The notes under the pieces were generated by a model. That model was not told the DNA's origin. It ran no database searches and was given only the letters and a program-made list of their open reading frames with translations. 64,000 bases of DNA from Billgrantia desiderata. Its GTDB lineage: Bacteria > Pseudomonadota > Gammaproteobacteria > Pseudomonadales > Halomonadaceae. The stretch's first letter is position 1. Every line of letters starts with the position of its first letter. A program made the position numbers and the translations under genes. Location: assembly GCA_011742915.1 (NCBI GenBank), contig JAAQTN010000008.1, forward strand, positions 86,590 to 150,589, in the 5' to 3' direction. Positions 3,517-16,395 of the stretch are shown piece after piece.

Positions 3517-4716
3517 ATGACTCAGGTATCCCTGTCCTTCACTCGTGAGGAATATGCCAGCCGGCTGTGGAAGGTGCGGGCCGAAATGGCCAGTCGAGGG
3601 ATCGACGTGCTGGTGATCAGTGACCCGTCCAACATGGCCTGGCTGACGGGCTATGATGGCTGGTCCTTCTACGTGCACCAGTGCGTGCTGGTGGGGCTGG
3701 AGGGCGAACCGGTGTGGTACGGCCGGCGCATGGACGCCAATGGGGCGCTGCGCACCTGCTGGATCGATCCGGACAACATCACCTACTACCCCGACTACTA
3801 CGTCCAGAACCCGGACATGCACCCCATGGATTACCTGGCCCAGTCGATCATGCCCGATCGCGGCTGGCATCAGGGCGTGGTAGGGCTGGAGATGGACAAC
3901 TACTACTTCTCGGCCAAGGCCTACCAGAGCCTGCTGCGCGAACTGCCCCATGCGCGCTTCATGGACGCCAACTCGCTGGTCAACTGGTGCCGTGCGATCA
4001 AGTCGCCCCAGGAGATCGCCTACATGCGGGTCGCAGGCAAGATCGTCGAGGGCATGCACTCTCGCATTCTCGAGGTGATCGAGCCCGGCCTGCCCAAGAG
4101 CAAGCTGGTCTCGGAGATCTACCGTGTCGGTATCGAGGGCTGGGTCGACGAGAACGGCAAGGTGCACGGCGGCGACTACCCCGCCATCGTGCCCATGCTG
4201 CCCACCGGCAAGGATGCGGCGGCACCTCACCTGACCTGGGACGACACGCCGTTCCGCAAGGGGGAAGGGACCTTCTTCGAGATCGCCGGGGTGTTCAAGC
4301 GCTACCATGCGCCGCTGTCGCGCACGGTATTCCTGGGCCGGCCGCCGCGGGACTTCGTGCGTGCCGAGTCGGCGCTGCTCGAGGGTATCGAGAACGGCCT
4401 GGCCGTGGCCAAGCCCGGCAATCGCACCGCCGACATCGCCATGGCCCTGGGCGCGGCGATGGACAAGTACGGCTTCGACCGCGGCGGTGCCCGCTGCGGC
4501 TACCCCATCGGCATCAGCTACCCGCCGGACTGGGGCGAGCGCACCATGAGCCTGCGTCCCTCCGACGAGACCGTTCTCGAGCCGGGCATGACCTTTCACT
4601 TCATGCCGGGCCTGTGGCAGGACGACTGGGGGCTCGAGATTACCGAGAGCATTCTGATCACCGAGACCGGCTGCGAAGCGCTGGCCAATTTTCCGCGCCA
4701 GCTTTTCGTGCGTTGA
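3517..4716 (+). CDS. doeA: Ectoine hydrolase DoeA (EutD)
   Basis: This 399-residue protein is a pita-bread fold (peptidase M24-like) enzyme that opens the ectoine ring to N-acetyl-L-2,4-diaminobutyrate, the first step of ectoine catabolism in the cytoplasm. An N-terminal creatinase-like domain (about 1-160) precedes the catalytic domain. Glu255 in TFFEIAG matches the position I recall as the catalytic Glu described for Ruegeria EutD. The usual M24 metal ligands are not evident, as expected for this subfamily. It leads the doeA-doeB-doeX run, diverging from enuR. The start at ATG 3517 has only a weak ribosome-binding site but gives the family's length and N-terminus. Confidence 0.95.
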   Translation: MTQVSLSFTREEYASRLWKVRAEMASRGIDVLVISDPSNMAWLTGYDGWSFYVHQCVLVGLEGEPVWYGRRMDANGALRTCWIDPDNITYYPDYYVQNPDMHPMDYLAQSIMPDRGWHQGVVGLEMDNYYFSAKAYQSLLRELPHARFMDANSLVNWCRAIKSPQEIAYMRVAGKIVEGMHSRILEVIEPGLPKSKLVSEIYRVGIEGWVDENGKVHGGDYPAIVPMLPTGKDAAAPHLTWDDTPFRKGEGTFFEIAGVFKRYHAPLSRTVFLGRPPRDFVRAESALLEGIENGLAVAKPGNRTADIAMALGAAMDKYGFDRGGARCGYPIGISYPPDWGERTMSLRPSDETVLEPGMTFHFMPGLWQDDWGLEITESILITETGCEALANFPRQLFVR

Positions 4717-4767
4717 GCCCGGAGTACAGCCAACGGCGGGGCGCCGGGGGCAAACCGAAGAGGAGGT

Positions 4768-4789
4768 CTTTTGCCAGGGAAGGCAAAAG
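4768..4789 (+). other. Perfect 8-bp hairpin in the doeA-doeB gap
   Basis: CTTTTGCC and GGCAAAAG flank a 6-base loop in the 199-base gap between doeA and doeB. No T run follows, so it is not a classic terminator. It could be an mRNA stability or partial-termination element, or a binding site; its role is unknown. Confidence 0.4.
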
Positions 4790-4915
4790 TAGCGTACAGG
4801 GAAGTATTCACAGCGCCTCCTCGCAGGTTTGCCGCCGGGCGAGCCCCGTGTCACGGCTGTAATGGCCCTGAGAATAGAATCGCGACAATCTGCACAAGAA
4901 TATGGAGTGCACCCA

Positions 4916-5929
4916 ATGACCAAGCGCCCAAGCCCTATTTCCGCTACCGTCGACTTCGACGCCGACGGCGTCCAGCACGGTTTCCTCAAGCTGCCGATCT
5001 CCACCGACGAGTCGGCCTGGGGGGCGGTGATGATTCCGGTGACCGTGGTCAAGAACGGCGAGGGCCCCACGGCGCTGCTGACCGGCGGCAACCACGGCGA
5101 CGAGTACGAGGGCATCACTGCGCTGCTGAAGCTGTCGAGCTCGCTGCGTGCCGAGGACGTGAGCGGTCGCGTGATCATCGTGCCGATGATGAACATGCCG
5201 GCGGCCATGGCCGGCAAGCGCACCTCGCCGATGGATGGCGGCAACCTCAACCGCAGCTTTCCGGGCGACCCCGACGGCACGGTGACCGAGAAGATCGCCG
5301 ACTACTTCACCCGGGTCATGACGCCGATGTGCGACGTGGTGCTCGACCTGCACTCCGGCGGGCGTACCCTGGACATCATTCCCTTCGGCGCCTCCCACGT
5401 GCTCGACGATCCCGAGCAGCAGCGCCAGGCGCTGGAGGGCGCCAAGGCGTTCGGCGCCCCCTACGCCATGATGATGTTCGAACTCGATGCCGCGGCGCTG
5501 TTCGATACCGCGGTGGAGAGTCAGGGCAAGATCTTCGTCGCCACCGAGCTGGGTGGTGGCGGCACCTCGACGCCCGAGAGTCTGGCCCTCACCGAGCGGG
5601 GCGTGCGCAATTTCCTGATCCACTTCGGCCTGCTTCAGGGCAAGGTGGAGATGCCCGCCGAGCCGCAGGTCTATCTCGACATGCCCGACGCCAGTTGCTA
5701 CGTGCAGAGCGAGCACAGCGGTCTGCTCGAGCTGACCCTGGCGCTGGGCGACAGGGTGGAGAAGGGCCAGGTGATCGCCCGCGTTTACGACATGACCCGC
5801 AGCGGTGCGGCACCGGTCGAGTACCATGCCGGGCGTGACGGCATCCTGGCAGCGCGGCGTTTCCCCGCGCTGGTCAACATGGGTGACACCATTGCCGTGA
5901 TTGCCGACGTGGTCGATTCCCTCGGCTGA
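4916..5929 (+). CDS. doeB: N-alpha-acetyl-L-2,4-diaminobutyrate deacetylase DoeB (EutE)
   Basis: This 337-residue zinc-dependent hydrolase of the succinylglutamate desuccinylase/aspartoacylase group (M14-like) removes acetate from N-alpha-acetyl-diaminobutyrate made by DoeA, giving L-2,4-diaminobutyrate. The zinc ligands are visible as His60 and Glu63 (GGNHGDEYEG) and His146 (LDLHSGG), with the substrate motif NLNRSFPG at about 110-117. The C-terminal third is the beta-rich domain usual for DoeB. I chose ATG 4916 (GGAG nine bases upstream) over an in-frame upstream start at 4829, because the extra 29 residues look like non-coding translation. It lies 199 bases after doeA. Confidence 0.94.
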   Translation: MTKRPSPISATVDFDADGVQHGFLKLPISTDESAWGAVMIPVTVVKNGEGPTALLTGGNHGDEYEGITALLKLSSSLRAEDVSGRVIIVPMMNMPAAMAGKRTSPMDGGNLNRSFPGDPDGTVTEKIADYFTRVMTPMCDVVLDLHSGGRTLDIIPFGASHVLDDPEQQRQALEGAKAFGAPYAMMMFELDAAALFDTAVESQGKIFVATELGGGGTSTPESLALTERGVRNFLIHFGLLQGKVEMPAEPQVYLDMPDASCYVQSEHSGLLELTLALGDRVEKGQVIARVYDMTRSGAAPVEYHAGRDGILAARRFPALVNMGDTIAVIADVVDSLG

Positions 5930-5983
5930 ATCCGCGTCGCTCTGCCGATGACAAGGCCGATCCGCCGTTAACAAGAGAAAACG

Positions 5984-6460
5984 ATGAAGCTCGATCGATA
6001 CGACCTGAAGATTCTCGAGATCCTGTCCCGCGATGGACGCATCACCAAGTCGAAGCTGGCCGAGGCCATCAACCTCTCGGTCAGCCCGTGCTGGGAGCGG
6101 GTGCGGCGGCTGGAGAAGGCCGGCATCATCGAGGGTTACGGTGCGCGCATCAATCCCGATGCGCTGGTCAAGCGCACCCCGGTGTGGGTGCAGATCGAGC
6201 TCAAGCAGCACAATGCCGAGAGCTTCGCCCGCTTCGAGGCGCTGGTCCACGAAACCCCCGAGGTCACCGAATGCGTGGCGGTGGGCGGCGGGGTCGATTA
6301 CCTGATGAAGGTCGAGGCCGACTCCGTCGATGCCTACCAGCGTCTCATCGACGCCTGGCTCACCTCGGACGTCGGCATCGAGCGCTATTTCACCTACATC
6401 GTGACCAAGGCGGTCAAACGCCCCGCGCCGGGCCTGGCGCGGAGCGACTTTCTCAGTTGA
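5984..6460 (+). CDS. doeX: Lrp/AsnC-family regulator DoeX
   Basis: The 158-residue protein has an N-terminal AsnC-type helix-turn-helix (about residues 4-60, RYDLKILEILSRDGRITKSK) and a C-terminal RAM ligand-binding domain. In Halomonas elongata the gene after doeA-doeB is doeX, an AsnC/Lrp regulator that binds near the doe promoter, and the order here is the same. It starts 54 bases after doeB and is probably cotranscribed. Effector identity (acetyl-diaminobutyrate, diaminobutyrate or an amino acid) cannot be read from the sequence. Having both EnuR-type and DoeX regulators suggests two-layer control of the locus. Confidence 0.92.
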   Translation: MKLDRYDLKILEILSRDGRITKSKLAEAINLSVSPCWERVRRLEKAGIIEGYGARINPDALVKRTPVWVQIELKQHNAESFARFEALVHETPEVTECVAVGGGVDYLMKVEADSVDAYQRLIDAWLTSDVGIERYFTYIVTKAVKRPAPGLARSDFLS

Positions 6461-6547
6461 TTTAGGCTGGAGCCGCTGCTGGCGCGGTCTCCAACGCGAA
6501 CTCAACGTTGATACCCTGAGTAGAATCATGGCATAAGCTAAAAGCGA

Positions 6548-6568
6548 GAGTGAGCCGACGGTTCACTC
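6548..6568. other. Hairpin between doeX and the inserted cassette
   Basis: GAGTGAGCC and GGTTCACTC pair over 8 of 9 bases around a 3-base loop, 88 bases after the doeX stop and 89 bases before the next gene. There is no T tract. It marks the only sizeable gap (196 bases) before the four-gene cassette and may be an operator or attenuating hairpin; no promoter could be assigned. Confidence 0.35.
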
Positions 6569-6656
6569 AGCCGGGCGATCTTCCGGCATGTCATCGCGGT
6601 GCCGGACGAGTTGGTTAGCGCCCAGAGACAAGATCGCCTGACGTAGAGAGATGCCC

Positions 6657-7526
6657 ATGTCCTACTTCACCATTGCCGGGGTGCAGATGCAGGCCCTGCA
6701 TCACGGTGACAATACCGAGGCCATGCGCCACCGGGTCGACGCGCTGATGAGTCGCTTTCCCCAGGTGCAGATGGTTCTGTTCAGCGAGCTGATGCCGCTC
6801 GGCGCTTCGCCACACCACGCCCACCCATTGCCCAGCCATGTCGAGCAGTTCTTCTGCCAGCTCGCCGAGCAGTACCGTATCTGGCTGATTCCCGGCTCCA
6901 TGTTCGAACGCACCGAGAGCGGTATCTACAACACCTTGTCGGTGATCGATCCGAGCGGCCAGGTGGTGGCGCGTTACCGCAAGATGTTCCCCTTCCGCCC
7001 CTACGAGGCCGGCGTGGAGAGCGGCACGGAGTTCGTCGTCTTCGACGTGCCCAACGTCGGTCGTTTCGGTGTGTCGATCTGCTACGACATGTGGTTCCCC
7101 GAGACCACCCGAACCCTGGCCGCCATGGGCGCCGAGGTGATTCTACACCCCACCATGACCGATACCATCGACCGCGACATCGAGCTTTCCATCGCCCGCA
7201 CCAACGCCGCGGTCAACCAGTGCTACTTCTTCGACATCAACGGTGCCGGCGCCCTCGGCAACGGCCGTTCCATCGTGGTGGGCCCCTCTGGCGACGTGAT
7301 CCATCAGGCCGGCACCGGTGAGGAGATCATGCCCATCGAGGTCGACTTCAGTCGGGTGCGGCGCGAGCGCGAGACGGGCCTGCGCGGCCTGGGGCAACCG
7401 CTCAAGAGCTTCCGCGACCGTCAGGTGGATTTCTCGGTCTACCGCTTCGAGCATGGTCCCTCGCCGTTTCTTGCCAGCCTGGGGCCGCTGGCCAAGCCGC
7501 AGCGCACCGATATCGAAGAGTATTGA
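6657..7526 (+). CDS. Carbon-nitrogen hydrolase (nitrilase superfamily amidohydrolase)
   Basis: The 289-residue protein has the complete nitrilase-superfamily Glu-Lys-Cys triad: Glu44 (LFSELMPLG), Lys109 (RKMFPF) and Cys142 (SICYDMWFPE). Such enzymes hydrolyse amides, N-carbamoyl compounds or, less often, nitriles, or transfer acyl groups. The Glu after YDMWFP favours an amidase-like branch rather than a true nitrilase. I preferred ATG 6657, with GAGAG six bases upstream, to ATG 6651. It is the first gene of a four-gene cassette between doeX and doeC; its stop overlaps the leader of the ATP-grasp gene. The substrate is unknown, and an amide or acylated amine from diaminobutyrate metabolism is only a guess. 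Confidence 0.85.
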   Translation: MSYFTIAGVQMQALHHGDNTEAMRHRVDALMSRFPQVQMVLFSELMPLGASPHHAHPLPSHVEQFFCQLAEQYRIWLIPGSMFERTESGIYNTLSVIDPSGQVVARYRKMFPFRPYEAGVESGTEFVVFDVPNVGRFGVSICYDMWFPETTRTLAAMGAEVILHPTMTDTIDRDIELSIARTNAAVNQCYFFDINGAGALGNGRSIVVGPSGDVIHQAGTGEEIMPIEVDFSRVRRERETGLRGLGQPLKSFRDRQVDFSVYRFEHGPSPFLASLGPLAKPQRTDIEEY

Positions 7527-7543
7527 CCCTTCAGGAGGTCGTC

Positions 7544-9148
7544 ATGCGGGAGTTCCTGTTGCGCCTGATTCGGCTGTTGCAGCGGAGCTTCCCGTCGCGG
7601 GGCTCCACTGCGGCATTGGCCGCCGGTACAGGCCGCGCCGATGCTATCCCTTCCGTCATCGATGGAGCGAAAACAATGAACAAGATCAACAACATTGCCG
7701 ACGTTCGCCGTCATTTTCGCAACAACAAGGAGCCGGTCTACTTCATCTCGGCGACCAACTTCAACCTGCTCGGTATCGGCGACTGGGTGGGCAACTTCCG
7801 GCACATCAACTACATCGACTGCTTCGACGGTCAGCAGCGCAACGTCTTCGTGCCCAAGGAGAAATTCCCGCGCGACTTCGAGAGCATCGAGGACATCAAC
7901 AACTACCTGCTCGAACACAAGGAGGTGATCGACTTCATCCAGTCGCGGGCCAGCGGCGACGATGCCGGGGTAGCCGCCTTCCTGATGTTCGACGAGCATA
8001 CCGAGGAGATCTGCCGGCAGCTCGGCCTGCGGGTCGCCTTCCCGCCGGCGGAGCTGCGCTCGCGCATGGACAACAAGATCGAGACGGTACGTATCGGCAA
8101 CAAGGCCGGAGTGCCCAGCGTGCCCAACGTGCTGGCTAGGGTCGGCAGCTACCAGGAGTTGCTCGAGGTCAGCCGTGAGCTGGGCGACGACCTGGTGGTG
8201 CAGACCGCCTACGGCGACTCCGGTCACACCACCTTCTTCATCGCCAGCGAAGACGACTACTACAAGCACGCCGAGGAGATCGAGGCCGAGCCCGAGGTCA
8301 AGATCATGAAGCGCATCAACTGCCGCGGCTCGGCCATCGAGGCCTGCGCCACCCGCTGCGGCACCGTGGTGGGGCCGTTGATGACCGAACTGGTGGGCTT
8401 CAAGTCGTTGACTCCCTACAAGGGCGGCTGGTGCGGCAACGAGATGTTCGCCGGCGCCTTCAGCCAGGAGATCCGCGACAAGGCCCGCGAATACACCTTC
8501 AAGTTCGGCGAGGCCCTGCGCGAAGAAGGCTACCGCGGCTACTTCGAGCTCGACTTCCTGATCGACATGGACAACGGCGAGGTCTACCTGGGCGAACTCA
8601 ACCCGCGGGTCACCGGCGCCAGCTCGCTGACCAACGTGGCGGCCTTCGCCCACTCCGACATCCCGCTGTTCCTGTTCCACCTGCTGGAGTTCTCCGACGT
8701 CGAGTTCGATCTCGACATCGAGGAGATCAACGAGCGCTGGTCGCACCCCGACAGCGTCGACAGCTGGAGCCAGCTGGTGATCAAGCACACCGACGAGAGC
8801 GTCGATCTGCTCACCCGGGCGCCGCGTACCGGGGTGTGGACGCTGGGCGCGGACAACCGCATCGCCTATGACCACTACAGCTATCACCCCCATGCCGCCG
8901 AGAACGAGCGCGAGGCCTTCTTCCTGCGTATCAGCGGGCCGGGCGACTTCCGCTACGAGGGCGCCGACCTGGGCATCCTGATCACCCGGGGTCGCCTGAT
9001 GGACGACGACTTCCAGCTCACCGAGCGGGCCAAGGCCTGGATCGAGGGCATTCGCGGCGAATACGCCGGCCAGCCGCTGCAGGACCCGCTGGTGGAGGAG
9101 GTCGCGGTGAGTCACGCCATCGGCGGCGGCAACTTCAAGATCCTATGA
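7544..9148 (+). CDS. ATP-grasp ligase (biotin carboxylase-like)
   Basis: The protein (534 residues from ATG 7544) has an ATP-grasp fold like biotin carboxylases and carboxylate-amine ligases: a nucleotide-binding lysine region near ETVRIGNKAGVPSVP, a glycine-rich loop (YGDSGHTT), and the Mg/ATP-binding run ELDFLIDMDNGEVYLGELNPR. ATG 7544 has a strong AGGAGG six bases upstream, but conserved-looking sequence begins only at the in-frame ATG 7676 (MNKINNIADV; 490 residues), so the true start is uncertain. The first 44 residues are basic and hydrophobic. No biotinyl or carboxyltransferase gene is nearby, so acetyl-CoA carboxylase function is unlikely; activation of a carboxylate to ligate an amine is more plausible. 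Its stop overlaps the next start (ATGA). Confidence 0.8.
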   Translation: MREFLLRLIRLLQRSFPSRGSTAALAAGTGRADAIPSVIDGAKTMNKINNIADVRRHFRNNKEPVYFISATNFNLLGIGDWVGNFRHINYIDCFDGQQRNVFVPKEKFPRDFESIEDINNYLLEHKEVIDFIQSRASGDDAGVAAFLMFDEHTEEICRQLGLRVAFPPAELRSRMDNKIETVRIGNKAGVPSVPNVLARVGSYQELLEVSRELGDDLVVQTAYGDSGHTTFFIASEDDYYKHAEEIEAEPEVKIMKRINCRGSAIEACATRCGTVVGPLMTELVGFKSLTPYKGGWCGNEMFAGAFSQEIRDKAREYTFKFGEALREEGYRGYFELDFLIDMDNGEVYLGELNPRVTGASSLTNVAAFAHSDIPLFLFHLLEFSDVEFDLDIEEINERWSHPDSVDSWSQLVIKHTDESVDLLTRAPRTGVWTLGADNRIAYDHYSYHPHAAENEREAFFLRISGPGDFRYEGADLGILITRGRLMDDDFQLTERAKAWIEGIRGEYAGQPLQDPLVEEVAVSHAIGGGNFKIL

Positions 9149-10173
9149 ACGGCGAAGTCGAGCGGCACCACCAGGCGCGGCGAGGGGAGATGGAGAAAGC
9201 GCTGGTCTTTCGTACCCTGCAGGAGGAGACGCCGGGGCCCAAGTGGCGATCGCTGTTCGATTACCATTGGCCGGCCTACGAGGCGTGGTACCTGGCCGAG
9301 GGGGAGCGTGAGCGGCCGGGTTACCTGAGCTGCTACAACGCCCTGCGTCGGCACATGCCGGAACTGCTGGACACTTACCGGGCGCTGTGCGAGCTGGCCG
9401 GGGGCGGCGATCTGGCGGCGCGCTTTCTCAGTCTCTACCAGCCGCCGCCGTACATCACCGGCTGTTCCCAGGCGGTGCTGGTGCGCCATGGCGCGCCGGT
9501 GCTGGCGCGCAACTACGACTACCCGCCCGAGCTGTGCGAGGGCACGGTGCTGTACACCCGCTGGAACGGACGCGGCGTGATCGCCATGACCGACTGCCTG
9601 TGGGGCGTGCTGGATGGCATGAACGAGGCGGGGCTGGCCGTGTCGCTGGCCTTCGGCGGACGCAAGGCGGTGGGCGAGGGCTTCGGCGCGCCGATCATCC
9701 TGCGCTATCTGCTGGAGTTCTGCGACAGCGTGCCCCAGGCCGCCGAGGTGCTGGCCCGGGTGCCCAGCCACATGGCCTACAACGTCACCCTGACCGATGC
9801 CGCGGGACGCTATGTCACGGCGATGATCGCCCCCGACCAGCGGGCCAGCATCCGCCGGGTGGCGGTGGCCACCAACCACCAGAAGAAGATCGAGTGGTAC
9901 GCCCATGCACTGGCCTCGGAAACCCTGATCCGCGAGCGCCAGCTGTCGATCCTGGTGGACGACCCGGCCACCAGCGAGGCGCGCCTGCTCGACGCCTTCG
10001 CCGCACCGCCGTTGTTTCGCCGCGACTACGCACGCGGGCTCGGCACCATCTACACCGCCGCCTACTGGCCGCTGTCGGGACGGATCAGCTATCGCTGGCC
10101 GCAGCAGCGTCTGGAACTGGCCTTCGAGCATTTTCCCGAACAGCAGTTGAGGGTCCGTTACGGCCCCAGGTAG
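9145..10173 (+). CDS. C45 family (acyltransferase-like) Ntn-hydrolase
   Basis: The 342-residue protein resembles peptidase family C45, the isopenicillin N acyltransferase/acid ceramidase-like Ntn-hydrolases. These cut themselves before a Cys that becomes the N-terminal nucleophile. Here Gly106-Cys107 (YITGCSQAVL) is the predicted self-cleavage site, followed by the family's N-x-D motif (ARNYDYP, 121-127) and GMNEAGLAVS. The enzyme would hydrolyse or transfer an acyl group on an amine or peptide. Translation is coupled to the ATP-grasp gene by an ATGA overlap, and the decarboxylase follows after 63 bases. No signal peptide is seen, so it is probably cytoplasmic. The substrate is unknown. Confidence 0.8.
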   Translation: MNGEVERHHQARRGEMEKALVFRTLQEETPGPKWRSLFDYHWPAYEAWYLAEGERERPGYLSCYNALRRHMPELLDTYRALCELAGGGDLAARFLSLYQPPPYITGCSQAVLVRHGAPVLARNYDYPPELCEGTVLYTRWNGRGVIAMTDCLWGVLDGMNEAGLAVSLAFGGRKAVGEGFGAPIILRYLLEFCDSVPQAAEVLARVPSHMAYNVTLTDAAGRYVTAMIAPDQRASIRRVAVATNHQKKIEWYAHALASETLIRERQLSILVDDPATSEARLLDAFAAPPLFRRDYARGLGTIYTAAYWPLSGRISYRWPQQRLELAFEHFPEQQLRVRYGPR

Positions 10174-10236
10174 CGTAGCCGCGGTATCGCGCAGGCGCCG
10201 CGGGAACAATAACGACAAAGAGGGATGGGTGTCGCC

Positions 10237-13014
10237 ATGAACGAAAGCAGCCATACCGAAACGCCCTATACCGCGCTGGGCTTCTATCACAAGATCTCCC
10301 AGCTGCGCGCCGACACCTGGAACGCGCTCAAGCGCGACCTGGGACAGCTGGTGCGGCTCAACGACGAGAGCCGGGCACGTAACCTGATCAAGGCGATCGA
10401 CGTCAAGCTGACGCGCCTCGAGATCATCGAGGACTACCACGCCTTTCCCTCCAAGGAGGACTTCCGTCACCTCTGGGCGCTGTTCGACCGTGAGGAGTAC
10501 GTGCTGCTGGAGAAGGTGGTCAAGCGGCTGGTGCGGGCGCTGATCAGCGAATCCTACCGTCGCCGCCACGTCGATCTCTCCGAGACCGATGCCGACGCCG
10601 AGGATCTCGAGACCCTTGATGCCCTGGCGCAGCTGCGCCATGGGCATCCGGCCTCCAACAGCTCGGCCCAGCCCTATTTCGAGCTGCTGATCGTCGACAA
10701 TCTCTCGTCCCAGGAAGAGGAGGTGGTGCGCGAGGCGTTCCATAGCCTGCGCCGGCCCGAGGACCGCTTCGTCTACGACGTGGTCACCGTACGCAGCTTC
10801 GAGGACGCCCTGATCGCGGTGCTGGTCAATCCCAACATCCAGGCCTGTCTGATCCGCTACGAGTTTCCCTACAAGTCCAAGTACAACCTCAGTGCGCTGC
10901 GCAACTACCTGGAGGGGCTCTCGGAGCAGGAGCTGGAGCACCAGTCGGAGGCCGAGCGCAGCATCCTGCTCAGCTCGATGATCCACGAGCTGCGCCCCGA
11001 GATCGATCAGTTCCTGGTCACCAGCGGCGACGTCGAGGCCACGGCGAGCCGCGACATCCGCCACTTCAACCGCATCTTCTATCGCGAGACCGACTACATC
11101 GAGCAGCACCACACCATCCTGCGTGCCATCGACAGCCGCTACCGCACGCCGTTCTTCGACGCCCTGCGCGAATACAGCAAGAAGCCCACCGGGGTGTTCC
11201 ACGCCATGCCCATCTCGCGCGGCAAGTCGGTGACCCGCTCGCACTGGGCGGGGCACATGATCGACTTCTACGGCATCAACATCTTCCTCGCCGAGACCTC
11301 GGCCACCTCGGGCGGCCTCGATTCGCTGCTGCAGCCCTACGGTCCGATCAAGAAGGCCCAGGAGTACGCCGCCCGCGCCTTCGGGGCGCGCCAGAGCTTC
11401 TTCGTCACCAACGGCACCTCGACGGCCAACAAGATCGTGGTGCAGGCGCTGGTCAAGCCCCGCGACATCGTGCTGATCGACCGCGACTGCCACAAGTCGC
11501 ACCACTACGGCATGGTGCTGGCGGGTGCCCACGTCAGCTACCTGGACTCCTATCCGCTCAACGATTACTCGATGTACGGCGCGGTGCCGCTGCGCGAGAT
11601 CAAGAAGACGCTGCTGGAGTACAAGCGCGCCGGTCAGCTCCACCGGGTCAAGATGCTGCTGCTGACCAACTGCACCTTCGACGGCGTGGTCTACAACGTG
11701 CGTCGGGTGATGGAGGAGTGCCTGGCGATCAAGCCCGACCTGGTGTTCCTGTGGGACGAGGCGTGGTTCGCCTTCGCCACCTTCAACCCCACCTACCGGC
11801 CGCGTACCGCCATGCACGCTGCGCGCACCCTGCGCGAGCGCTACCGCAGCGAGGCCTACCGCGAGGAGTATGCGGCGTGGAAGGCGGAGTTCGATGCGCT
11901 CGACCCCGACGACGATGCCACCTGGCTCGAGCGCCGGCTGCTGCCCGACCCGGAGACGGTGCGCATCCGCGCCTATGCCACCCACTCCACCCACAAGACC
12001 CTGACCTCGCTGCGCCAGGGCTCGATGATCCATGTCTGGGACCAGGACTTCCGCCAGAAGGTCGAGGCGCCGTTCCACGAGGCCTACATGACGCATACCT
12101 CCACCTCGCCCAACTATCAGATTGTGGCGTCGCTGGACGTTGGGCGCATGCAGGCCGAGATGGAGGGCTTCGAGCTGGTTCATGCCCAGGTGGAGGCGGC
12201 ACTGTCGCTGCGCGAGCAGCTCTACACCCATCCGCTGCTGCAGAAGTACTTCCGGGTACTCAAGAACAGCGACATGGTGCCCGCCGAGTATCGTGAGTCG
12301 GGGGTCGAGTCCTACTTCGACCCGGTGACCGGCTGGAACCAGATGGAGGAGGCGTGGGCGCGGGACGAGTTCGTGGTCGATCCCACCCGGGTGACCATCG
12401 CCATCGGCAACACCGGGGTCGACGGCGACGCCTTCAAGAACGAATACCTGATGAACAAGTACGGCATTCAGATCAACAAGACCTCGCGCAACACCGTGCT
12501 GTTCATGACCAACATCGGCACCACCCGCGGCTCCATCGCCTACCTGCTCGACGTGCTGATCAAGCTGGCCAAGGAGTTCGAGTACCGCTGGGAGGAGAGC
12601 AGCCGGCCCGAGCGCAAGATCATCGAACGCCGGGTGCATTCGCTGACCCAGGAGCTGCCGCCGCTGCCCGACTTCAGCCGCTTCCACGACGCCTTCCGCC
12701 AGTGCCCCGAGACCCCCGAGGGCGACATTCGACGTGCCTACTTCCTCAGCTACGACGAGGAGAACACCGAGTACCTGCGCTTCGACAACGGCGAACTCCA
12801 GGCCGAGATGCGCGCCGGCCGCGACGTGGTCTCGGCCAGCTTCGTGATTCCCTATCCGCCGGGCTTCCCGGTGCTGGTGCCGGGGCAGGTGATCAGCGAG
12901 GAGATCCTCCACTTCCTGCAGGCGCTCGACGTCAAGGAGATCCACGGCTACCGGCCGGAGCTGGGCCTGATCGTGTTCACCGAAGAGGCGCTGGCCGCGC
13001 CGCCGGAGACCTGA
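10237..13014 (+). CDS. Orn/Lys/Arg decarboxylase-family enzyme, large form
   Basis: This 925-residue fold-type I PLP enzyme belongs to the bacterial Orn/Lys/Arg decarboxylases, which turn basic amino acids into diamines. It has an N-terminal response-regulator-like wing (about 130-270), a PLP domain and a C-terminal domain. The PLP lysine is about K587 in ATHSTHKTLTSLRQG. It is longer than typical CadA/SpeC (710-750 residues) because of extra sequence at the N-terminus and around residues 525-560. ATG 10237 was preferred to ATG 10225, which leaves no room for the purine-rich site. As last gene of the cassette, it could act on ornithine, lysine, arginine or diaminobutyrate; the last would link it to DoeB's product, but this is inference. 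Confidence 0.85.
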   Translation: MNESSHTETPYTALGFYHKISQLRADTWNALKRDLGQLVRLNDESRARNLIKAIDVKLTRLEIIEDYHAFPSKEDFRHLWALFDREEYVLLEKVVKRLVRALISESYRRRHVDLSETDADAEDLETLDALAQLRHGHPASNSSAQPYFELLIVDNLSSQEEEVVREAFHSLRRPEDRFVYDVVTVRSFEDALIAVLVNPNIQACLIRYEFPYKSKYNLSALRNYLEGLSEQELEHQSEAERSILLSSMIHELRPEIDQFLVTSGDVEATASRDIRHFNRIFYRETDYIEQHHTILRAIDSRYRTPFFDALREYSKKPTGVFHAMPISRGKSVTRSHWAGHMIDFYGINIFLAETSATSGGLDSLLQPYGPIKKAQEYAARAFGARQSFFVTNGTSTANKIVVQALVKPRDIVLIDRDCHKSHHYGMVLAGAHVSYLDSYPLNDYSMYGAVPLREIKKTLLEYKRAGQLHRVKMLLLTNCTFDGVVYNVRRVMEECLAIKPDLVFLWDEAWFAFATFNPTYRPRTAMHAARTLRERYRSEAYREEYAAWKAEFDALDPDDDATWLERRLLPDPETVRIRAYATHSTHKTLTSLRQGSMIHVWDQDFRQKVEAPFHEAYMTHTSTSPNYQIVASLDVGRMQAEMEGFELVHAQVEAALSLREQLYTHPLLQKYFRVLKNSDMVPAEYRESGVESYFDPVTGWNQMEEAWARDEFVVDPTRVTIAIGNTGVDGDAFKNEYLMNKYGIQINKTSRNTVLFMTNIGTTRGSIAYLLDVLIKLAKEFEYRWEESSRPERKIIERRVHSLTQELPPLPDFSRFHDAFRQCPETPEGDIRRAYFLSYDEENTEYLRFDNGELQAEMRAGRDVVSASFVIPYPPGFPVLVPGQVISEEILHFLQALDVKEIHGYRPELGLIVFTEEALAAPPET

Positions 13015-13202
13015 GCGCCGCGCGCAGAAAAAAACGCAACTTAGCTCTGGAGGACAAAAAAAAGCGCACTTGCCCTGCCGGTTAACGAAAAGTCCCGCCC
13101 CGGGTTTGCCCTTACCCTGTAGCCATCGAGCAGCCGCCGGCTGCTCTGTCGTTTTGCCACAGCCGGCCCGTGAGCGAGGGGCCGGTGTCAGGGGAGGTGC
13201 CC

Positions 13203-14702
13203 ATGAACATGAAGCTGACCAATACACTGTCCACCATGCTCGATGATCCGCGTCTGTTTCGTCAGCACGCCTATGTGAACGGCAAATGGACCCACGGCGA
13301 CGGCGGCCGTGAGGAGACGGTGTTCGATCCTGCCACCGGCGAGGTCATCGGCTACATCCCCTGGCTCGAGGCGCATCAGATCCGTGAAGCGGTAGACGCC
13401 GCCGATGCCGCCTTCGTGCACTGGCGTGCGCTGCGTGCAGACGAGCGCGCCGAGCGGCTCATGGCCTGGCACGACCTGCTGCAGGCCCACCGCGAGGACC
13501 TCGCCATCATCATGACCCTGGAGCAGGGCAAGCCGCTGCCCGACGCCCGCGGCGAGGTGGAGTACGGCGCCAGCTTCGTGCGCTGGTTCGCCGAGGAGGG
13601 CAAGCGCACCTTCGGCGAGACCATTCCCAGCCACATCCCCAACGCCGCCCTGGGCACGCTCAAGGAGCCGGTGGGCATCGCCGCGCTGATCACGCCGTGG
13701 AACTTCCCGCTGGCGATGATCACGCGCAAGGCCGCCGCCGCCCTGGCCGCCGGCTGCACCGTGGTGGTCAAGCCGGCCGGCGAGACGCCGTTCTCGGCGC
13801 TGGCACTGGCCGAGCTGGCCGAGCGTGCCGGCATTCCGGCAGGCGTGTTCAACGTGGTACTGGGCGAGCCCGCCGAGGTCTCGAAAATTCTATGTGCTGA
13901 AGAGCGGGTCAAGGCGCTATCCTTCACCGGTTCCACCCGGGTCGGCCGGCTGCTGCTCGAGCAGAGTGCCCAGACGGTGAAGCGCGTGTCGCTGGAGCTC
14001 GGCGGCAACGCCCCGTTCATCGTCGGCCCCGACATGGACCCCAAGGAGGCGGCCTTTGCCGCGGTGGCGGCCAAGTTCCAGACCGCCGGTCAGGACTGCC
14101 TGGCGGCCAACCGCATCCTGGTGCACGAGTCGATCCACGACGAGTTCGTCGAACACTTCGCCGAGCGCATGGCGGCATTGACCGTGGGCAACGGCATGGA
14201 GAGCGAGGTCGACCTGGGGCCGCTGATCCATCGTCAGGCGGTGGACAAGGCGGCGGCCATCGTCGACGACGCCATCTCCCGTGGCGCCACGCTGGTGGCC
14301 GGCGACCAGACCCGGGCACCGGGAGAGAACTTCTTCATGCCCACGCTGCTCACCGGCGTGACCCCGCAGATGAAGGTATGGCGCGAGGAGAACTTCGCCC
14401 CGGTGGCCGGCGTGACCGCCTACCGCGACGACGACGAAGTGATCGAGATGGCCAACGACACCGAGTACGGCCTGGCGGCCTATGTCTACACCCACGACAT
14501 CCGCCGCATCTGGAAGCTGCTGCGGGCGCTGGAGTACGGCATGGTCAGCGTCAACTCGGTGAAGATGACCGGCCCGCCCGTGCCCTTCGGCGGCGTCAAG
14601 CAGTCGGGGCTGGGCCGCGAGGGCGGCATCACCGGGATCGATGAGTATCTCGAGACCAAGTATTACTGCCTGGGGGCTTTGGGGTCCGTATCGGGGAGCT
14701 GA
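13203..14702 (+). CDS. doeC: Aspartate-semialdehyde dehydrogenase DoeC (aldehyde dehydrogenase family)
   Basis: The 499-residue protein is a classical NAD(P)-dependent aldehyde dehydrogenase close to succinate-semialdehyde dehydrogenases. Key residues are Asn167 (TPWNFP), the general base Glu265 (LELGGNAP) and the nucleophile Cys299 (TAGQDCL). In ectoine breakdown DoeC oxidises aspartate 4-semialdehyde, produced by DoeD, to aspartate. ATG 13203 has GGGGAGG just upstream and is preferred to an in-frame GTG at 13170. In H. elongata the doeC-doeD pair belongs to the same pathway; here four other genes separate it from doeX. Substrate assignment relies on this context, because the family also includes GabD-type enzymes. 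Confidence 0.9.
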   Translation: MNMKLTNTLSTMLDDPRLFRQHAYVNGKWTHGDGGREETVFDPATGEVIGYIPWLEAHQIREAVDAADAAFVHWRALRADERAERLMAWHDLLQAHREDLAIIMTLEQGKPLPDARGEVEYGASFVRWFAEEGKRTFGETIPSHIPNAALGTLKEPVGIAALITPWNFPLAMITRKAAAALAAGCTVVVKPAGETPFSALALAELAERAGIPAGVFNVVLGEPAEVSKILCAEERVKALSFTGSTRVGRLLLEQSAQTVKRVSLELGGNAPFIVGPDMDPKEAAFAAVAAKFQTAGQDCLAANRILVHESIHDEFVEHFAERMAALTVGNGMESEVDLGPLIHRQAVDKAAAIVDDAISRGATLVAGDQTRAPGENFFMPTLLTGVTPQMKVWREENFAPVAGVTAYRDDDEVIEMANDTEYGLAAYVYTHDIRRIWKLLRALEYGMVSVNSVKMTGPPVPFGGVKQSGLGREGGITGIDEYLETKYYCLGALGSVSGS

Positions 14703-14970
14703 AGCGAGAGGAAGCGCCAGCGCATCCCATCTCGCGATGCCCAAGGGCGAAACCCTGACGCTGCGTTTGCGGCTTGCGCGTCGGACCGGATCAAGGTCCC
14801 TCTTGCCGGTCCTCGATCGACATCCCTGTCGATCGCCGCGCGCCGCTGCACTTGCGCCAGCGCCCTTGGGTAGATATCGCTCGTTGGCTTGCCCTGGCGC
14901 TGGGCCAGCGACGTCATAACGAATTGAACATCTCCCCGCTGCGGCGGGGCATTGGAGAAGAGAGAGCATA

Positions 14971-16395
14971 ATGAACCAGCAGCACCGCGATCTGATCGAG
15001 CGCGACCGCAAGGTCACCTTCCACGCCTCCACCCACCTGCGCGATTTCGCCCATGGCGATGCGCCGGGCCGGGTGATCACCGGCGGCAAGGGCATCCACA
15101 TCGTCGACAAGGACGGCCGCGAGTTCATCGACGGCTTCGCCGGGCTGTACTGCGTCAACATCGGCTACGGCCGCACCGAGGTGGCCGAGGCGATCTATCA
15201 GCAGGCGCTGGAGCTCTCGTACTATCACACCTACGTGGGCCACTCCAACGAGCCGCAGATCGCGCTCTCCGAGAAGATCATCGCGCTCGCCGGCCCCGGC
15301 ATGTCCAAGGTCTACTACGGCCTCGGCGGCAGTGACGCCAACGAGACCCAGCTCAAGATCGTGCGCTACTACAACAACGTGCTCGGTCGCCCGCAGAAGA
15401 AGAAGGTGATCTCGCGTCAGCGCGGCTACCACGGCTCGGGCCTGGCCACCGGCTCGCTGACCGGCCTCAAGGCGTTCCACGACCAGTTCGACCTGCCGCT
15501 GGCGGGCATCCTGCACACCGAGGCGCCGTACTACTACCACCGCGCAGCCGAGCAGGAAGGTATGAGCGAGCGCGAGTTCTCCCAGTTCTGCGCGCAGAAG
15601 CTGGAAGAGATGATCCTGGCCGAAGGCCCCGACACCGTGGCCGCCTTCATCGGCGAGCCGGTGCTCGGCACCGGCGGCATCGTGCCGCCGCCGGAAGGCT
15701 ACTGGGAGGCGATCCAGGCCGTGCTGGCCAAGTACGACGTGCTGCTGATCGCTGACGAAGTGGTGTGCGGCTTCGGTCGTATCGGCGCCGATTTCGGCAG
15801 CCACCACTACGGCATCAAGCCCGACCTGATCACCGTCGCCAAGGGCCTGACCAGCGCCTACCAGCCGCTCTCCGGCGTGATCGTCGGCGACCGCGTATGG
15901 AGCGTGCTGGAGCAGGGCACCGGCCAGTACGGCCCCATCGGCCACGGCTGGACCTACTCCGGTCACGCCCTGGGCTGCGCCGCGGCGCTGGCCAACCTGG
16001 CGATCATCGAGCGCGAGGGGCTGACCCGGAACGCCGCCGAAACCGGCGCCTACCTGCAGCAGCGGATGCAGGCCGCCTTCGGCGAGCATCCCATCGTCGG
16101 CAACGTGCGCGGCGTGGGCATGCTGGCGGCGCTGGAGTTCTCGGTCGACCCTGCCCGGCGCGCGCACTTCGACGCCGCGCACAAGGTCGGTCCGCGCATC
16201 GCCGCGGCGGCGCTGGACGAGAACCTGATCGCCCGCGCCATGCCCCAGGGCGACATCCTCGGCTTCGCGCCGCCGCTGGTGGCGACCCCTGCCGAGATCG
16301 ACGAGATCGTCGCCCGCGCCGAGCGTGCGGTGAACAAGGTCACCGACCAGCTGGTGCGCGAAGGCGTGGTCAAGGCCGCCATGTCGGTGAGCTGA
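14971..16395 (+). CDS. doeD: L-2,4-diaminobutyrate transaminase DoeD
   Basis: This 474-residue class III (fold-type I) aminotransferase carries its PLP lysine at K291 (TVAKGLTSAY) and the PLP-ring Asp at D262 (IADEVVCGFGR). In the ectoine pathway it moves the 4-amino group of diaminobutyrate to an acceptor, forming aspartate semialdehyde for DoeC. The family also includes omega-amino acid:pyruvate transaminases, so the assignment leans on the neighbours. It begins 268 bases after doeC, with GGAGAAGAGAG upstream of the ATG, and is followed 48 bases later by a strong terminator that closes the unit. Confidence 0.9.
   Translation: MNQQHRDLIERDRKVTFHASTHLRDFAHGDAPGRVITGGKGIHIVDKDGREFIDGFAGLYCVNIGYGRTEVAEAIYQQALELSYYHTYVGHSNEPQIALSEKIIALAGPGMSKVYYGLGGSDANETQLKIVRYYNNVLGRPQKKKVISRQRGYHGSGLATGSLTGLKAFHDQFDLPLAGILHTEAPYYYHRAAEQEGMSEREFSQFCAQKLEEMILAEGPDTVAAFIGEPVLGTGGIVPPPEGYWEAIQAVLAKYDVLLIADEVVCGFGRIGADFGSHHYGIKPDLITVAKGLTSAYQPLSGVIVGDRVWSVLEQGTGQYGPIGHGWTYSGHALGCAAALANLAIIEREGLTRNAAETGAYLQQRMQAAFGEHPIVGNVRGVGMLAALEFSVDPARRAHFDAAHKVGPRIAAAALDENLIARAMPQGDILGFAPPLVATPAEIDEIVARAERAVNKVTDQLVREGVVKAAMSVS

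What the first reader, a model, noticed from the sequence alone, without database searches (positions are those of the whole stretch)
6657..13014. Four-gene enzyme cassette inserted into the ectoine-degradation operon
Between doeX and doeC lie a nitrilase-fold amidohydrolase, an ATP-grasp ligase, a C45 Ntn-hydrolase and a large Orn/Lys/Arg decarboxylase, in one direction with overlaps or short gaps. None belongs to the known ectoine pathway. An activating ligase, two amide-bond hydrolases and a PLP decarboxylase resemble a diamine or acyl-amine conversion pathway. Because DoeB makes diaminobutyrate next door, a side route from diaminobutyrate (for example to 1,3-diaminopropane or an N-acylated diamine) is an attractive but unproven idea.
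Basis: partly seen in the sequence, partly recalled or inferred. Interest (0 to 1): 0.78.

Follow-up and report, generated by a model that had tools for sequence, protein, structure and literature searches.

The report
Portable four-enzyme cassette beside ectoine genes
Four enzyme genes that keep together in several groups of bacteria sit between the ectoine-breakdown genes of Halomonas-type bacteria, and their largest enzyme probably decarboxylates an acidic amino acid rather than a diamine precursor, which gives an orphan enzyme family a testable job.

Summary
The four genes are real, in the stated order: nitrilase-fold amidase, ATP-grasp protein, C45 Ntn-hydrolase and OKR-fold decarboxylase, on one strand between doeX and doeC. 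They form a unit: in 79 of the best 80 named loci all four adjoin, and 71 of 80 lie between doeX and doeC. The unit also stands alone: none of 27 loci outside the Halomonadaceae had a doeA or doeB hit. It sits at the boundary of doeABX and doeCD, separate transcription units in H. elongata.

The diaminobutyrate idea is not favoured. The decarboxylase belongs to the family of M. tuberculosis Rv2531c, whose activity is unknown. All 26 members compared carry Arg within the former PGHxGG motif, and Lys/Arg where E. coli AdiA, CadA and SpeF have Glu, Asp, Ala. A sister clade is encoded beside AspT-type antiporters in 7 of 7 loci. Some copies lie near GABA transaminase, dicarboxylate/amino-acid transport or arginine-to-GABA genes. 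I infer Glu to GABA or Asp to beta-alanine, then making and breaking an amide. No substrate was tested; any role in ectoine use remains open.

The parts
6657..7526 (+). nit: nitrilase-superfamily amidase, 289 aa; Glu-Lys-Cys triad by motif at E46, K111, C144 (numbered from ATG 6651)
   Evidence: CN_hydrolase 7.7e-34; motifs FSEL, YRKM, SICYD. In 6 other diverse copies the Glu and Cys motifs matched in 6, my Lys pattern in 3. Relatives start at MSYFTIAGVQM; an ATG 6 bp upstream is also possible.
7544..9148 (+). ATP-grasp protein (named 'biotin carboxylase' PRK06524), 534 aa; conserved core from about 7673
   Evidence: NF005096 759 bits over cut-off 684; GDSG-x-TT and GELNPR invariant in 18 diverse homologues; no Biotin_carb_N/C or biotinyl domain in Pfam at E 0.01.
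9145..10173 (+). C45 Ntn-hydrolase with Gly-Cys autoprocessing site (C107 from the 9145 start); start at 9145 or 9190
   Evidence: AAT 5.2e-32, NF040521 182.6 bits; model of mean pLDDT 59.7 matches isopenicillin N acyltransferase 2x1c, E 4.8e-8; Gly-Cys invariant in 21 homologues.
10225..13014 (+). dec: OKR-fold PLP decarboxylase, 929 aa, Rv2531c family; PLP-Lys K591; basic positions R332 (Arg in 26 of 26) and K738 (Lys in 24, Arg in 2)
   Evidence: OKR_DC_1 9.5e-77; 9n0n/9n0o E 3e-251 and 4e-251; residues.
6461..6656 (+). cassette leader: promoter-like TTGATA...CATAAGCT, and GGCGATC...GATCGCC inverted repeat
   Evidence: By eye in my alignments: TAAGCT in 17 of 18 doe loci, the CATAAGCT-like element in 16 of 26 chosen loci and in 2 of 6 Marinobacter/Oleiphilaceae; GGCGATC in 14 of 18. 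The consensus scan did not report a promoter here.
13015..13202 (+). native doeC upstream region kept behind the cassette; terminator-like hairpin 13128-13146
   Evidence: Closely resembles the doeX-doeC gap of cassette-free L179; hairpin (4 found against 5.0 expected in shuffles, so weak by itself).
3517..6460 (+). doeA, doeB, doeX: upstream ectoine hydrolase, deacetylase, Lrp/AsnC regulator
13203..16395 (+). doeC and doeD: downstream dehydrogenase and transaminase
   Evidence: names by position and family.

Best explanation
A portable amino-acid module lodged at the doeABX/doeCD boundary. Shown: four conserved adjoining genes with catalytic motifs in place, a free-standing existence elsewhere, and what reads as a deletion scar in one near relative. 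Inferred, step 1: dec removes the alpha-carboxyl of an acidic amino acid (Glu to GABA, or Asp to beta-alanine). Step 2: the ATP-grasp enzyme joins that omega-amino acid to another amine or acid as an amide, as carnosine synthase does. Step 3: the self-cleaving C45 enzyme breaks (or exchanges) that amide, as Tan does with beta-alanyl-dopamine. Step 4: the nitrilase-fold enzyme removes a terminal amide or carbamoyl group. In Halomonadaceae the link to ectoine would be that DoeD and DoeC release glutamate and aspartate, the supposed dec substrates, not diaminobutyrate. Confidence by part: dec acts on an acidic amino acid about 0.6; conjugate cycle about 0.35; real metabolic link to ectoine about 0.4. 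Carnosine synthase and Tan as analogies are recalled.
For: Unit integrity. dec residues: in 26 of 26 family members (the window's own included) Arg aligns with the first Gly of the closing GG of PGHxGG, and Lys (24) or Arg (2) with AdiA E551, CadA D506, SpeF A512. Antiporter partners: the seven loci of a sister clade (FastTree support 1.00) all have an AspT-type antiporter gene next to dec: L055 634 and L184 701 bits, over the 547 cut-off; L185 and L186 below it at 376 and 371; L187, L188 by BLAST; L189 by reading its frame. L184 also carries aspartate 4-decarboxylase, 780 bits over 435. Yardstick: in E. coli K-12 cadA-cadB and speF-potE adjoin and adiA is one gene from adiC. Near the module elsewhere: GABA transaminase over its cut-off next to C45 in L158, with a PuuR-like regulator below cut-off; annotated gabT with two genes between it and nit in Roseobacter ponti; SDF symporter and a Glu/Asp-type binding protein after C45 in Cupriavidus L147 (SDF over the Pfam cut-off; both below the NCBIfam cut-offs); an arginine-to-GABA set and no dec in two annotated Shinella-type plasmids. 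Peptide-type ABC transporters follow it in R. ponti and ABC transporters in rhizobial plasmids, which fits an amide or peptide. C45 fold.
Against: No assay or transcript. K738 lies beside an alignment gap, and pocket positions rest on sequence and recall, not on a structure laid over AdiA. AspT partners belong to the sister clade, not to the cassette clade; four of the seven genomes are one genus, and only two of the partners are over the AspT cut-off. Of the E. coli decarboxylases LdcC and SpeC were not looked at. Of 27 non-Halomonadaceae loci 5 lack dec and 11 lack nit (several are contig ends or fragments), so neither is strictly required. Many neighbours are unrelated genes, or transporters of unknown substrate (TAXI TRAP beside nit in L046). 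Profile matches of the ATP-grasp family to solved chains are all biotin-dependent carboxylases (14 of 14 at E 0.001), which does not point to an amide ligase; its structure model failed (pLDDT 38.8), so its acceptor is unknown.
Confidence: 0.4

Rival explanations
1. Diaminobutyrate side route: dec turns DoeB's product diaminobutyrate into 1,3-diaminopropane, and ligase and hydrolases handle acylated diamines.
For: Location beside the doe genes in 71 of 80 named loci; OKR fold is that of basic-amino-acid decarboxylases.
Against: No doeA/doeB hit in 27 of 27 non-Halomonadaceae loci; none above 27% identity in the Marinobacter/Oleiphilaceae loci, where 3 of 7 have only a distant M24-peptidase hit; basic invariant residues in dec; acidic and GABA-type partners.
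Confidence: 0.1
2. Arginine route: dec makes agmatine from arginine, and the nitrilase-fold enzyme acts on N-carbamoylputrescine or 4-guanidinobutyramide.
For: Best NCBIfam hit of nit is N-carbamoylputrescine amidase, 81.6 bits, far below the 410 cut-off; arginine genes around the module in Shinella-type plasmids and an agmatinase-family gene upstream of nit in L157.
Against: Where arginine genes surround the module dec was not found; no agmatine deiminase in the annotated stretches; dec residues.
Confidence: 0.15
3. Passenger: whatever its chemistry, the cassette has no functional link to ectoine and merely occupies a permissive intergenic site.
For: Longer doeX-doeC gaps in 4 of 20 loci without the cassette there (about 1 kb in L166, L173; 7.0 and 8.6 kb in L167, L181); promoter-like element of its own in many loci; copies away from doe genes in Vreelandella massiliensis L138 and Marinobacter; deletion scar in L179.
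Against: The same position is kept in 71 of 80 named loci over several genus names, which suggests shared regulation or flux.
Confidence: 0.4
4. The ATP-grasp gene is a true biotin carboxylase, as its database name says.
For: NF005096 name; all 14 profile matches to solved chains are biotin-dependent carboxylases, at best E 4e-8 and mostly over about 100 positions.
Against: Pfam shows no Biotin_carb_N, Biotin_carb_C or biotinyl domain at E 0.01; no carboxyltransferase among the four genes.
Confidence: 0.05

Closest known systems
M. tuberculosis Rv2531c (9n0n, 9n0o, 9n0p), 'probable amino acid decarboxylase'
   Same: Full-length homologue of dec, E 3e-251, 839 bits, alignment from residue 18 to 925 of dec.
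   Different: Activity unknown (PMC12910592, passages). I did not examine its gene neighbourhood.
OKR decarboxylases AdiA, CadA, SpeF
   Same: Fold family and PLP-lysine motif S-[TV]-H-K.
   Different: PGHxGG replaced by P-[IVL]-[SA]-R-[GA]; Lys/Arg where the three have Glu, Asp, Ala; larger (929 aa); far below the cut-offs of the six Lys/Arg/Orn decarboxylase models hit.
Aspartate decarboxylation / AspT antiporter systems
   Same: Sister clade of dec is encoded beside AspT-type antiporters.
   Different: dec gave no AspD-family hit; no antiporter among the four cassette genes.
Carnosine synthesis (decarboxylase plus ATP-grasp ligase) and Tan (C45 hydrolase)
   Same: Same enzyme types as a make-and-break pair (carnosine synthase and Tan recalled; GADL1 seen in the search listing).
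   Different: No sequence-level relation tested; product unknown; extra nitrilase-fold enzyme.
Ectoine catabolic cluster doeABXCD
   Same: Same locus and strand.
   Different: In H. elongata only doeX, doeC and doeD lie between doeAB and eutBC (PMC3187862, passages).

Membership tests
Basic-amino-acid OKR decarboxylases (AdiA/CadA/SpeF type) | OKR_DC_1 domain and PLP-binding lysine | tested here: met
   OKR_DC_1 9.5e-77; K591 aligned with CadA K367, Lys in 26 of 26 members.
Basic-amino-acid OKR decarboxylases (AdiA/CadA/SpeF type) | Cut-off of a named Arg/Lys/Orn decarboxylase model and PGHxGG signature | tested here: not met
   215 bits against 968 for LdcC, 197 against 1167 for arginine decarboxylase; PGHxGG absent in 26 of 26.
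Acidic amino acid decarboxylase (function, proposed) | Activity on Glu or Asp | not testable with these tools
   Inferred from context and residues only.
C45 autoproteolytic acyltransferase/hydrolase | NF040521 over cut-off, Ntn fold, Gly-Cys site | tested here: met
   182.6 bits against 85; IAT fold match E 4.8e-8 with a model of mean pLDDT 59.7; Gly-Cys invariant in 21 sequences. Self-cleavage itself not tested.
ATP-grasp superfamily | ATP-grasp domain with phosphate loop and metal-binding ExNxR | tested here: met
   CPSase_L_D2 6.3e-5, 23.0 bits against 19.8; GDSG-x-TT and GELNPR invariant in 18; motif meaning recalled.
Biotin carboxylase | Biotin_carb_N, Biotin_carb_C, biotin carrier partner | tested here: not met
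   None in the Pfam scan at E 0.01; though the NCBIfam model named biotin carboxylase is over its cut-off.
Nitrilase-superfamily amidase | CN_hydrolase domain, Glu-Lys-Cys triad | tested here: met
   7.7e-34; triad motifs in the window protein.
N-carbamoylputrescine amidase AguB | TIGR03381 cut-off | tested here: not met
   81.6 bits against 410.
Ectoine degradation pathway | Required for or regulated with ectoine use | not testable with these tools
   Position only; no expression or mutant data.

The most novel reading that the evidence does not exclude
A previously undescribed pathway in which an OKR-fold enzyme that switched from basic to acidic amino acids makes GABA or beta-alanine, an ATP-grasp ligase stores it as an amide conjugate, and a self-cleaving C45 hydrolase with a nitrilase-fold amidase releases it: a bacterial counterpart of carnosine and beta-alanyl-amine metabolism, tied in Halomonadaceae to ectoine turnover. 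It would also give the orphan Rv2531c family a substrate class.
Probability: 0.28. Interest if true: 0.78.

Novelty: new variant of a known kind. Interest (0 to 1): 0.6.

Why it matters
A solved but functionally orphan enzyme family (Rv2531c) would receive a concrete substrate prediction, the OKR decarboxylase fold would gain an acidic-substrate branch, and the database name 'biotin carboxylase' for the ATP-grasp gene could be checked. It would also show that ectoine breakdown in many halophiles may feed a further amino-acid route from aspartate or glutamate.

Tried and rejected
Rejected or inconclusive: the AlphaFold model of the ATP-grasp enzyme failed (mean pLDDT 38.8), so no fold search was made with it. 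Rfam gave two weak matches (E 0.15 and 0.58, below the gathering scores) and none in the nit leader. Searches of the held library for the gene combination found no paper (zero each; subscription journals and preprints are not held). Searching 9n0n/9n0o/9n0p led to one relevant paper. Substrate-binding residues of CadA could not be confirmed from PMC7866039 (passages). Gene calls in fetched loci came from a simple script of my own; it mispredicted opposite-strand ORFs in some (for example L157, L162, L189), so the tallies use tblastn. The contents of the longer doeX-doeC gaps were only glanced at.

Rows dropped or limits: the 80 named loci are the best 80 of 106 confirmed, so they lean to Halomonadaceae. 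Of 183 genomes with doeA I fetched 20 loci to look at sites without the cassette: 19 without a dec match and G196, whose dec lies on another contig. The 26 dec sequences and the 18 and 26 leader sequences were chosen by me. Loci cover mostly 8-12 kb either side, so absence means absence in that stretch.
Full report
What is there. The window is from a Halomonadaceae genome (its closest named hits are Billgrantia and Halomonas). Between doeX (5984-6460) and doeC (likely 13203-14702) lie four ORFs on the + strand: a nitrilase-superfamily amidase, an ATP-grasp protein, a C45 Ntn-hydrolase and a 929-residue OKR-fold decarboxylase. If C45 starts at 9145 it overlaps the ATP-grasp gene by four bases (it may start at 9190); the other joints are short.

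It is a unit. A named-genome scan with the ATP-grasp protein confirmed 106 loci and returned the best 80. In all 80 nit, ATP-grasp and C45 adjoin, and in 79 dec follows; the exception, L136, ends at a contig end. In 71 of 80 the unit lies between doeX and doeC (median gaps 184 and 181 bp, but up to 7.4 and 3.1 kb in outliers). The nine others are Marinobacter (6), Oleiphilaceae (1), Aquisalimonas (1) and Vreelandella massiliensis (1); four of them show a 25-27% doeA hit, taken as other M24 peptidases. In an even draw of 201 genomes of the window's family, 65 have a dec match at E 1e-80 (one of them, G170, only 44% identical) and 183 have doeA over its cut-off. Of the 65, 53 have dec starting 6.5-8.4 kb from doeA on the same contig, one 15 kb, three on another contig (G196; G159, with contigs broken at dec; G170), and for eight the doeA row was not printed; one of these eight, G129, is seen in the doe locus in L060.

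It does not need ectoine genes. The ATP-grasp family (NF005096) was found in 11 of 398 genomes of the window's phylum (8 over the cut-off) and in 10 of 385 of another class of it (7 over the cut-off), and in 32 plasmid records, 24 with at least 80% of the query. In 27 fetched loci outside the Halomonadaceae none has a doeA or doeB hit; C45 is present in 25 (a fragment in L144, split in L145), dec in 22, nit in 16, several losses being contig ends. Gene order differs: nit-dec-ATP-grasp-C45 in 10 of 27, so the unit has been rearranged and kept.

How it sits in the ectoine locus. In H. elongata doeABX is one operon and doeCD is not part of it (PMC3187862, passages). I fetched 20 of the 183 doeA loci to see sites without the cassette: doeX and doeC are 175-305 bp apart in 13, about 1 kb in two, 7.0 and 8.6 kb in two, and doeC was not found in the stretch in three. 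The window's dec-doeC gap closely resembles the native doeX-doeC gap of L179, whose doeC and doeD are 97% identical; L179 still carries about 20 bases resembling the 3' end of dec, a deletion scar read by eye. So the cassette occupies the boundary and doeC keeps its own upstream DNA. A promoter-like element (TTGAT...CATAAGCT) stands upstream of nit: by eye TAAGCT in 17 of 18 doe loci, and the element in 16 of 26 chosen loci but only 2 of 6 Marinobacter/Oleiphilaceae and none of the 5 Vreelandella; the automatic scan did not report it. Own transcription is suggested only.

What dec does. By sequence its nearest solved relative is Rv2531c (E 3e-251), whose activity is not known (PMC12910592, passages; the structure paper itself was not held). 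Set against AdiA, CadA and SpeF, 26 of 26 family members (the window's own included) keep the PLP lysine, but carry Arg at the first Gly of the closing GG of PGHxGG, and Lys (24) or Arg (2) where the three have Glu, Asp and Ala. That the latter position binds the substrate's end group in basic decarboxylases is recalled, not shown here, and it borders an alignment gap. A search with the 44% relative found a sister clade in six further genomes. With L055 that is seven loci, and in all seven the gene adjoins an AspT-type antiporter gene: two are over the AspT cut-off (L055, L184), two scored are below it (L185, L186), L187 and L188 are called by BLAST, and L189 by reading its frame, with a second antiporter gene 3 kb on at 542 bits, just below the cut-off of 547. 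L184 also has an aspartate 4-decarboxylase gene between two antiporter genes. Four of the seven genomes share a genus. In E. coli K-12 cadA and speF adjoin a transporter gene and adiA lies one gene from adiC (LdcC and SpeC not looked at), which is why I take the partner as a hint to the substrate.

Context of the cassette elsewhere. For an acidic or GABA-type substrate: GABA transaminase next to C45 (L158), gabT with two genes between it and nit (Roseobacter ponti), SDF symporter and Glu/Asp-type binding protein after C45 (Cupriavidus L147), and, where dec is missing in two annotated Shinella-type plasmids, racemase, D-amino acid dehydrogenase, 5-guanidino-2-oxopentanoate decarboxylase, aldehyde dehydrogenase and agmatinase-family genes that together read as arginine to GABA. 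Class III aminotransferase hits also lie near the ATP-grasp gene in L159 and L161. For a peptide-like compound: peptide-type ABC transporter genes after C45 in R. ponti, and ABC transporter genes in rhizobial plasmids. Neutral: TAXI TRAP transporter beside nit in L046 and many unrelated genes. The simplest common denominator is an omega-amino acid, GABA before beta-alanine.

The other three enzymes. C45: Gly-Cys site invariant in 21 sequences; a moderate model (pLDDT 59.7) matches isopenicillin N acyltransferase. Nit: Glu-Lys-Cys motifs in the window protein, not AguB by cut-off. ATP-grasp: conserved motifs in 18 diverse sequences; profile matches to solved chains are 14 biotin-dependent carboxylases, yet no biotin-related Pfam domain; its model failed. 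An ATP-grasp enzyme, if it is an amide ligase, next to an amide-cleaving Ntn enzyme suggests a make-and-break cycle; carnosine synthase plus Tan are the nearest analogies, recalled.

Verdict. I commit to an acidic-amino-acid decarboxylase module making and breaking an omega-aminoacyl amide, at 0.4 overall, with the decarboxylase part firmer (about 0.6) than the rest. No paper on the gene combination was found in the held library.

Noticed in passing
L166, L167, L173, L181 between doeX and doeC: The doeX-doeC gap is longer in these loci without the cassette: about 1 kb in two, and 7.0 and 8.6 kb with other genes in two. A paper reports an extra GGDEF-type ORF beside doeX in H. hydrothermalis Y2 (PMC6815383, passages). 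The site may be an insertion hotspot.
   Followed up: partly
window 6461-6656: Leader of nit with a GGCGATC...GATCGCC inverted repeat (GGCGATC in 14 of 18 doe loci by eye); no Rfam match there.
   Followed up: partly
window 13025-13075: A-tract repeats (CAGAAAAAAACGC, ACAAAAAAAAGCGC) upstream of doeC, with similar tracts in the relatives and empty sites aligned: possible DoeX/Lrp sites.
   Followed up: no
L144, L145, L148, L150, L151: dec - ATP-grasp - C45 without nit on rhizobial plasmids, in L150 next to nifHDKEN and in three (L145, L150, L151) followed by annotated ABC transporter genes; some copies fragmentary.
   Followed up: partly
L184 521-8479: OKR-type decarboxylase, AspT antiporter, aspartate 4-decarboxylase and a second AspT antiporter in one row.
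   Followed up: partly
NF005096 / PRK06524: The model name 'biotin carboxylase' may be a misannotation of an ATP-grasp ligase: no biotin-carboxylase Pfam domains matched.
   Followed up: partly
window 7544-7672: Halomonadaceae and Marinobacter ATP-grasp ORFs carry an extra amphipathic-looking N-terminus that several alphaproteobacterial forms lack.
   Followed up: no
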